A DNA stretch of 64,000 nucleotides from Clostridium sp. MB40-C1 (GTDB lineage: Bacteria; Bacillota; Clostridia; Clostridiales; Clostridiaceae): the NCBI RefSeq assembly GCF_030913655.1, contig NZ_CP133189.1:2790001-2854000 (forward strand). The letters run 5' to 3'. Below, piece after piece: positions 30,632 to 55,721 of the stretch; the stretch's first letter is position 1; the number at the start of each line of letters is the position of its first letter. Under the pieces are notes generated by a model. That model searched no databases, was not told the DNA's origin, and worked only from the letters and a program-made list of their open reading frames with translations. The position numbers and the translations under genes were made by a program.

Positions 30632-31257
30632 ATAATACCTCCTACATTAAATAAAAACTCACATCAATTATTATTGAACAATTAATTACTTTTTATTCAT
30701 ATTTAATCCATTAATATAAATTTAATTTATTAGTTGATTAATAAAATTTATCCACAATTTTAGAATCTTAATTGTTAAATTTACTTAAATAGTAATATAT
30801 AGTAAACATCTGACTTTAAACTATAATGTTTTTTTGTTGTTATCTATAAAAATCCTAAAATAACCTATTTATTAAATTATTTAGTTTAAAGATTTTCTCA
30901 CATTAGGAAGAAAATCATCATTTAGTCTTCCTCTTCTCCCCAGTATACATATTAGACTATATTACTTATAAAGAAACTAAGGCAGAGAAATTGGATTTTC
31001 TTATATATGTAGTTAGCCAATTAAACTTTGAAGTAGCAACTAGAAATACTTAAGGTGTAGGTTTCTAAAAATACGTAATTGTCGGAACGGACTCCGACAG
31101 CCTAGCTGGGGAATGGACTCCCCATAGCGAGGGTAGCATTTTTAGAAGAATACACCTTTAGTATTTCTTTGCCTTCTGAAGGTTTAATGGATAACTACAT
31201 ATATTCTAGAAAATTCTATTTCTCTGCCGTTATTCATTACATCGCACTTTTATTCTA
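30632..31257 (+). other. Intergenic region holding structured RNA element copy 1
   Basis: No gene seen. 30632-30887 is AT-rich without clear signals. 30888-31246 is the large RNA element described separately. The remaining 11 bases reach the stop codon of the minus-strand DMT transporter gene. Confidence 0.7.
30888..31246 (+). ncRNA. Large structured RNA element, copy 1
   Basis: Closely similar to 55353-55709. Long-range helices: GGCAGAGAAAT with ATTTCTCTGCC (30981-30991/31218-31228), 13-bp 31003-31015/31192-31204, ATTAAAC/GTTTAAT (31020/31182), AGAAATACT/AGTATTTCT with AAGGTGTA/TACACCTT (31042-31059/31151-31168), TTCTAAAAAT/ATTTTTAGAA (31063/31138). Inside are twin 6-bp hairpins with hexaloops ACGGAC (31087-31092) and ATGGAC (31113-31118), 8 bases apart. 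Helices change together between copies, and U-G wobbles occur only in the plus reading, so I assign the plus strand. No promoter or terminator is certain. I do not recognise an Rfam family. Confidence 0.75.
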
Positions 31258-55003: not shown

Positions 55004-55183
55004 TTATAACATAATCGAAAAATGTTGCGACGCAACATTACTTAGTAACCAGATACCAAGCTAGTGAAAGAGGATTTTTTTCTGGTGTTAAAAAATCTTT
55101 AAATTTTAAAAGCAGTTAACGAAACATCATCTTTTTCATTAACTGCTTTTGGTGTTATTCTTAAAAGAACTGGTAAGCTCTCA

Positions 55184-55209
55184 GAGCGATAGCTCAATTG
55201 GAGTAGAAC
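55184..55209 (+). other. tRNA 5'-end-like fragment
   Basis: GAGCGATAGCTCAATTGG followed by AGTAGAAC looks like an acceptor strand plus D-arm. No anticodon stem, TTCGAAT arm or 3' acceptor follows, so it is at most a relic. Confidence 0.35.
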
Positions 55210-55352
55210 TTATCCTAGATTAATTACCTATGCTTTAAAATAACTTTAAAATATTCTTTTGTCCGTTAGGACTTAGAAACTTTCTTTAAAAATTTTGTTT
55301 CACATCTAAATTTTATATGACCACTCAAATCATGAATAAAGCATTTAAATTC

Positions 55353-55709
55353 AAAGATTTTCTGACATAAGGAAGAAAATCATCCTTTAGTCTTCCTCTT
55401 CTCCCCAGTATACATATTAAATTATATTACTTATAAAGAAACTAAGGCAGAAGAATTGGATTTTCTTATATATGTAGTTAGCCGATTAAACTTTGAAGTA
55501 GCAATTAGAAGTACTTAAGGTGTAGAATTCTAAAAATCCGTAATTGCAGGAATGGACTCCTGCAGCCAAACTGTGTCATGGACGACGCATAGTGAGGGTA
55601 GGATTTTTAGAAGGCTAAGCCTTTAGTACTTCTTTGCGTGCTGAAGGTTTAATGGATAACTACATATATTTAGAAAAACCTATTCTTCTGCCGTTATTCA
55701 TTACGTCAC
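55353..55709 (+). ncRNA. Large structured RNA element, copy 2
   Basis: Same order of helices as copy 1. Paired changes relative to copy 1: outer stem GGCAGAAGAAT/ATTCTTCTGCC, AGAAGTACT/AGTACTTCT, first hairpin GCAGGA-ATGGAC-TCCTGC (55546-55563), second hairpin TGTGTC-ATGGAC-GACGCA (55572-55589, with one U-G pair). The 8-base spacer between hairpins and the hexaloops are kept while the stems differ. Ends 12 bases before the mrp stop codon (minus strand), the same placement as copy 1. Confidence 0.75.
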
Positions 55710-55721
55710 AACATTATTATA

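What the first reader, a model, noticed from the sequence alone, without database searches (positions are those of the whole stretch)
30888..31246. Two genomic copies of a large, covarying structured RNA
Seen directly: 30888-31246 and 55353-55709 are close copies of about 358 bases in otherwise unrelated intergenic DNA. At least five nested helices can be drawn. Differences between the copies are concentrated in helices and are compensatory (for example GGCAGAGAAAT/ATTTCTCTGCC versus GGCAGAAGAAT/ATTCTTCTGCC; AGAAATACT versus AGAAGTACT with matching partners). U-G wobbles at several changed pairs exist only if the plus strand is the RNA. Compensatory change is the hallmark of selection on RNA structure. 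No open frame or known riboswitch/RNA signature is recognised.
Basis: partly seen in the sequence, partly recalled or inferred. Interest (0 to 1): 0.85.

Follow-up and report, generated by a model that had tools for sequence, protein, structure and literature searches.

The report
Mobile repeat carrying a TwoAYGGAY RNA
The two look-alike stretches belong to a family of about forty jumping-gene-like repeats in this Clostridium genome, each built around a long folded RNA of an already catalogued but poorly understood type that may soak up the regulatory protein CsrA.

Summary
Pairing co-varies beyond both controls. Changes inherited between copies favour G·U over A·C on the plus strand (17:3 on internal branches), so a plus-strand nucleic acid is probably selected.

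It is not an unknown RNA. Its apex is a divergent member of Rfam RF01731, TwoAYGGAY: one copy passes the cut-off (43.9 bits), window copy 2 scores 33.8, and window copy 1 joins only through its relatives. A 2014 paper proposed that TwoAYGGAY binds CsrA; this genome has three CsrA genes, and 39 of 44 copies keep both GGA loops.

What looks new is the setting: here the RNA is cargo of a ~700-bp dispersed element with terminal palindromes; in another genus it sits in a 313-bp element with other ends and 5-6-bp target duplications (13 of 16). Searches found no such link in print. Transcription and CsrA binding are untested.

The parts
55016..55721 (+). Window copy 2: full-length element (~695 nt from palindrome to end of the 3' half-palindrome; outer limits approximate)
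   Evidence: 98.4-99.4% identical over 692 nt to copies L018, L019, L020 at other sites; site without the element in congener G005
55021..55039 (.). 5' terminal palindrome AATGTTGCGACGCAACATT; also a terminator-like hairpin on the minus strand
   Evidence: 39 distinct places at <=2 mismatches in the genome (69 rows, since a palindrome is met on both strands) against 0 control rows; terminator scan
55350..55391 (+). Module A with a local hairpin; an inverted second copy lies further upstream in 17 of 40 copies by BLAST, not in this one
   Evidence: module A also at six loci read in G003, G005, G012 and G022, where the Rfam scan saw no TwoAYGGAY
55446..55692 (+). Long imperfect hairpin (plus-strand RNA)
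   Evidence: fold z -10.5; covariation over 44 copies
55494..55644 (+). Match to Rfam RF01731 TwoAYGGAY, 33.8 bits, E 0.0013 for 461 bases (cut-off 43)
55552..55557 (+). First apical loop, AUGGAC (CsrA-type GGA loop)
   Evidence: sequence; GGA kept in 42 of 44 copies
55578..55583 (+). Second apical loop, AUGGAC
   Evidence: sequence; GGA kept in 41 of 44 copies
55704..55715 (+). 3' terminal half-palindrome CGTCACAACATT (inverted relative to the 5' end)
30880..31251 (+). Window copy 1: element without the 5' palindrome part; 3' end degenerate (CATCGCACTTTT at 31240-31251)
30981..31228 (+). Long hairpin of window copy 1
   Evidence: fold z -11.1; aligned in A1
31087..31092 (+). First apical loop, ACGGAC
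   Evidence: sequence
31113..31118 (+). Second apical loop, AUGGAC
   Evidence: sequence

Best explanation
The finding is two copies of a dispersed, mobile-type intergenic element whose cargo is a TwoAYGGAY-family structured RNA. Shown: many copies at unrelated sites, some nearly identical over the whole element; shared ends; a site without the element in a congener; a long covarying hairpin; two GGA loops at its tip; a match to RF01731. Inferred: the plus strand is transcribed; the two GGA loops bind one CsrA dimer; the RNA acts as a CsrA decoy, so the element family adds many CsrA sinks to the cell. Selection on the propagating copies keeps the plus-strand fold, while inserted copies drift. 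How this element moves is not known.
For: RF01731 matches: 43.9 bits (L022), 39.2 (L018), 33.8 (window copy 2); 13 copies at E<=1 genome-wide. 33 near-complete loci plus about 8 remnants; full elements up to 99.4% identical over 692 nt; site without element in G005. Covariation with both controls. GGA in loop 1 in 42/44, loop 2 in 41/44, both in 39/44, while pairs beside them (columns 117/132, 118/131, 147/156, 148/155) swap. Plus-strand bias: G·U against A·C gains 17:3 on internal branches, binomial p 0.003; with random ties 17:3 by site, about 16:2 by pair. Three CsrA genes, one beside fliW. TwoAYGGAY in 19 of 206 family genomes; all 19 have CsrA, against 172 of 206 overall (P 0.027 without correction for kinship). 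PMC4333381 (passages) proposed that TwoAYGGAY binds CsrA. Both GGA motifs in 22 of 22 readable family-wide hits, though those hits were found with a model that scores these loops, so this is weak.
Against: No transcript data. No sigma-70-like promoter above chance in either window copy (0 found against 2.9 expected; 1 against 3.7). Window copy 1 has no Rfam hit even at E<=10; only 1 copy passes the cut-off. CsrA co-occurrence is weak because CsrA is nearly ubiquitous in the family. The strand bias fades if variants seen in two copies are pooled (13:6 against 20:20, p 0.26; in two copies alone 3 G·U and 6 A·C), and the internal-versus-terminal contrast is p 0.054. A strict test saw both GGA hairpins in only 3 of 22 family-wide hits (second stem interrupted), while one of seven control triplets, CCT, reached 4 of 22. 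No target-site duplication was found for this element.
Confidence: 0.6

Rival explanations
1. A purely DNA-level long-inverted-repeat element. The arms are kept complementary by palindrome-templated repair or because single-stranded DNA hairpins are used in movement; no functional RNA.
For: Both strands of copy 1 fold about equally well; terminal palindrome and half-palindrome; private changes show nearly equal G·U and A·C (20:20 by variant; 34:23 by branch); six deletion derivatives have lost the hairpin centre (L037, L040, L041, L043, L044, L046).
Against: Inherited changes favour G·U (17:3); unpaired GGA loops are kept while the stems swap; the same apical RNA rides in g47 on an element with different ends. 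A plus-strand single-stranded DNA hairpin would, however, also tolerate G·T.
Confidence: 0.2
2. A 3'-end module: a bidirectional terminator and mRNA-end stabiliser dispersed between convergent genes, as with REP- or ERIC-type repeats.
For: The nearest downstream ORF is antisense in 41 of 54 copies and the nearest upstream ORF codirectional in 35 of 51; a neighbour's stop codon lies within 30 nt of the hairpin-side 3' end in 35 of 52 copies and within 20 nt of the 5' palindrome in 19 of 29; the palindrome is terminator-like; the site without element in G005 holds, as read by eye, a terminator-like hairpin between two stop codons.
Against: Termination needs only the 19-nt palindrome, which also occurs alone; it does not explain two conserved GGA loops.
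Confidence: 0.12
3. The structured RNA serves the element's own movement (a guide, scaffold or intermediate for an unknown transposase).
For: Plus-strand fold selected in propagating lineages; no ORF of 80 aa or more in either window copy; no target-site duplication.
Against: The same RNA rides in a g47 element with ordinary inverted ends and 5-6-bp duplications, and several genomes have a single match, so movement and RNA look separable.
Confidence: 0.06

Closest known systems
TwoAYGGAY RNA, Rfam RF01731 (Weinberg et al. 2010, PMC2864571)
   Same: Two apical hairpins with NGGA loops on a long stem; one copy above the family cut-off, 12 more at E<=1 genome-wide; Clostridiales is among its listed taxa.
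   Different: Only 1 copy passes the cut-off; ~41 loci in one genome; embedded in a ~700-nt element with terminal palindromes.
CsrB/RsmZ-type CsrA-sequestering RNAs
   Same: Hairpin loops with GGA, in pairs; CsrA genes present in the genome.
   Different: Only two such loops per RNA (CsrB and RsmZ carry more, recalled); binding untested; dispersed in many copies.
bcr1 repeat of the Bacillus cereus group (mostly recalled; size and structure class seen in passages of PMC2267715)
   Same: Dispersed intergenic repeat with a conserved fold and mobile-element features.
   Different: Other sequence; 147-167 nt in that paper's table; no GGA-loop pair known to me.
313-bp TwoAYGGAY-carrying element of the unnamed genus g47 (G195, G196)
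   Same: Same apical RNA family, multi-copy, inverted ends.
   Different: Ends TGATTATCCCACAA; 5-6-bp target duplications in 13 of 16 copies with both ends; module A not seen in the copies read.

Membership tests
Rfam RF01731 TwoAYGGAY | covariance-model score at or above the cut-off of 43 bits | tested here: inconclusive
   1 copy at 43.9, 12 more at 28.7-41.4; window copy 2 33.8; window copy 1 no hit
Rfam RF01731 TwoAYGGAY | two adjacent hairpins with GGA-type loops | tested here: met
   GGA in loop 1 in 42/44, loop 2 in 41/44, both in 39/44; both window copies have both
Rfam RF01731 TwoAYGGAY | long closing stem supported by covariation | tested here: met
   helices 1, 4 and 5 have double changes, helices 2 and 3 none; 98.4% of cells paired
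CsrA-sequestering sRNA | binds CsrA | not testable with these tools
   only a published motif prediction
CsrA-sequestering sRNA | host encodes CsrA | tested here: met
   three PF02599 matches above cut-off; FliW gene next to one
CsrA-sequestering sRNA | expressed as a plus-strand transcript | not testable with these tools
   no promoter above chance; no RNA data
MITE | inverted ends, no coding capacity, many dispersed copies | tested here: met
   ends; no ORF of 80 aa or more in the window copies; copies
MITE | target-site duplication | tested here: not met
   no offset or length stands out in 30 copies with both ends; the g47 relative has it, 13 of 16
MITE | autonomous relative with the same ends | not tested
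   seven places of the palindrome (L060, L062, L068, L070, L074, L075, L077) were read by eye over ~50 nt before and 600 nt after it; no systematic search

The most novel reading that the evidence does not exclude
CsrA-decoy RNAs are recurrent cargo of mobile elements in Clostridiaceae. At least two element types with unrelated ends carry the same RNA family and have spread it to tens of copies, so copy number itself tunes the CsrA regulon, either for the host or as a selfish trait of the element.
Probability: 0.33. Interest if true: 0.8.

Novelty: new variant of a known kind. Interest (0 to 1): 0.52.

Why it matters
In the passages that I read, TwoAYGGAY is a catalogued RNA without a tested function, and its proposed role as a CsrA-titrating RNA outside Gammaproteobacteria rested on motif prediction (PMC4333381, 2014). 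A genome with ~33 near-complete copies, and congeners with filled and unfilled versions of one site, gives a natural dosage series to test that prediction. If confirmed, it would be a case where transposition multiplies a global regulator's decoy.

Tried and rejected
Rfam scan of the whole window at gathering scores: nothing. Scan around copy 1 at E<=10: only two unrelated low-scoring hits. A relaxed scan of eleven loci gave TwoAYGGAY in two. 'Two copies only': rejected. 'Single vertically inherited gene at window copy 2': the same intergenic site holds one TwoAYGGAY in G003, an inverted hairpin-less derivative in G007 and no element in G005, as read by eye. Orthology with G003 is possible, but repeated insertion at one hot spot is not excluded; the other four congeners were printed too and showed no element by eye, but gene order there was not checked. 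Plasmid and phage collections: no match. Target duplications of the G000/G007 element: none. Promoters: none above chance. Strict two-hairpin test on family-wide hits: met in 3 of 22, with one of seven control triplets at 4 of 22; a looser position test, whose windows I set after seeing the first, gave 22 of 22. Literature searches on Clostridium MITEs, structured RNA in miniature elements, and CsrA sponges on transposons listed no description (listings only). Seven papers hold the word TwoAYGGAY, five listed; I read passages of three. An alignment for a covariance model was made but the model was not built.

Full report
WHAT IS THERE. The two stretches are 87% identical. A search of G000 with copy 1 found many further places. 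A second search with the hairpin of copy L022 found 33 loci that keep at least 214 of its 249 nt and 7 remnant loci; one search adds an eighth. Both searches scored only 40 of the candidates of the first look (156 and 100), so the counts are floors. G007 has at least 15 further loci.

ANATOMY. Copy 2 is full length: a palindrome AATGTTGCGACGCAACATT at 55021-55039, a variable ~310-nt stretch, module A (55350-55391), a pyrimidine-rich stretch, a 247-nt hairpin (55446-55692) and an inverted half-palindrome (55704-55715). In 17 of 40 G000 copies BLAST finds an inverted second copy of module A upstream. Full elements of the copy-2 subfamily (W2, L018, L019, L020) are 98.1-99.4% identical over 692 nt at different places, so they spread recently. 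Copy 1 lacks the 5' palindrome. There is no ORF of 80 aa or more in either. With ORFs of 90 aa or more, the nearest downstream one is antisense in 41 of 54 copies and the nearest upstream one codirectional in 35 of 51 (55 copies examined, those without such an ORF left out). A neighbour's stop codon lies close to the ends in 35 of 52 copies (3' side) and 19 of 29 (5' side). No target-site duplication stood out in 30 copies with both ends.

STRUCTURE. Alignment A1 holds 44 of the 55 oriented copies; left out were 9 with deleted or partial hairpins and 2 diverged G007 copies, L093 and L094. 98.4% of pair cells are standard pairs against 94.1% in shuffles; 17 pairs have double changes against 11.7; covariation score 0.150 against 0.076; slid structures reach at most 0.046. 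Further standard pair types are less striking (56 against 51.4; 3 of 500 shuffles reach it), and helices 2 and 3 show no double change. Strand test: variants present in one copy are 20 G·U and 20 A·C; in two copies 3 and 6; in three or more 13 and 0, of which three G·U are the majority state. Taking 10:0 against 20:20 gives p 0.003; pooling two or more gives 13:6 and p 0.26. On a FastTree tree with parsimony, internal branches have 17 G·U and 3 A·C gains (binomial p 0.003), terminal branches 34 and 23 (Fisher contrast p 0.054); unpaired positions show more G-to-A (25) than C-to-T (14) on terminal branches, which would favour A·C. That run broke ties alphabetically; with 200 random tie-breakings internal gains are 17:3 by site and on average 16.1:1.9 by pair, terminal ones about 31:25. 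I read this as selection on a plus-strand fold in the copies that propagate, with relaxed drift afterwards. Copies may recombine, so the tree is approximate.

IDENTITY. A relaxed Rfam scan of eleven loci matched RF01731 TwoAYGGAY at 43.9 bits (L022, cut-off 43, E 0.00045) and 39.2 bits (L018). Genome-wide, 13 copies reach E<=1 and one passes the cut-off. Copy 2 scores 33.8 bits; copy 1 has no hit and is assigned through 86% identity to L022. The loops carry GGA in 42 and 41 of 44 copies, both in 39, while stem pairs beside them swap. Family-wide, 19 of 206 genomes have matches at E<=0.001, with filters that lose weak ones. Of 26 such loci examined, 4 could not be read as cut; both GGA motifs were present in the other 22, six of which are near-identical copies from two genomes, and all were found by a model that scores these loops. 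All 19 genomes have CsrA, as do 172 of 206 overall (P 0.027 uncorrected).

A SECOND ELEMENT TYPE. In genomes G195 and G196 the RNA is also multi-copy (9 and 12 matches), mostly inside 313-bp units with ends TGATTATCCCACAA. Of the 21 copies, 16 have both ends within 3 edits and 13 of these have a direct duplication of flanking sequence, 11 of 5 bp and 2 of 6 bp; shuffled pairings give on average 1.5 and 0.1, at most 6 and 2. This is clear transposition, with ends unlike those of the G000 element.

HISTORY OF ONE SITE. At the locus of window copy 2, between a small ORF and a ParA/Mrp-type ATPase gene (PF10609), G000 has the element, G007 an inverted derivative without a complete hairpin, G003 a single diverged TwoAYGGAY (50.5 bits), and G005 only a terminator-like hairpin (read by eye). 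So the site is variable; whether G003 is orthologous or a separate insertion is open.

FUNCTION. [quoted passage not shown] PMC2864571 (one passage) listed the motif as probably an RNA and probably not cis-regulatory, whereas the Rfam record is typed Cis-reg. The window's genome has three CsrA genes, one next to fliW. I therefore favour a CsrA decoy. Shown: dispersal, fold, loops, family match. Inferred: transcription, binding, titration.

NOVELTY. The RNA type is known; its spread as cargo of at least two mobile element types is, as far as reach (open-licence papers only), not described.

Noticed in passing
G195, G196 loci (L117, L118, L132, L133, L138, L139, L159-L173): A 313-bp TwoAYGGAY-carrying element with ends TGATTATCCCACAA and 5-6-bp target duplications (13 of 16 copies with both ends).
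   Followed up: yes
L049, L051, L055 (G003, G005); G000:C1:324786-327804 (L077): Sister elements with module A and its inverted copy in G003 and G005, seen without the long hairpin; near L077 the same 5' modules with a hairpin remnant at 325912.
   Followed up: partly
G000:C1:2935594-2937156 (L014): A broken DDE transposase gene (PF01609, two pieces) inserted inside the 5' part of one element copy.
   Followed up: partly
L062, L074, L075: The terminal palindrome occurs alone, with flanking A and T tracts in L074 and L075, resembling bidirectional terminators; their sharing one stem sequence is unexplained.
   Followed up: no
5' parts of many copies (for example L010, L022, W2): Short near-tandem words next to the palindrome (TAGTGAA, GTACTAG, AGTAACCAG types) that differ between subfamilies.
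   Followed up: no
L037, L040, L041, L043, L044, L046: Deletion derivatives that lost the centre of the hairpin.
   Followed up: no
G000:C1:752159, 2561030, 2564073: Three csrA-like genes in one Clostridium genome; two lie 3 kb apart, far from the only fliW match.
   Followed up: partly
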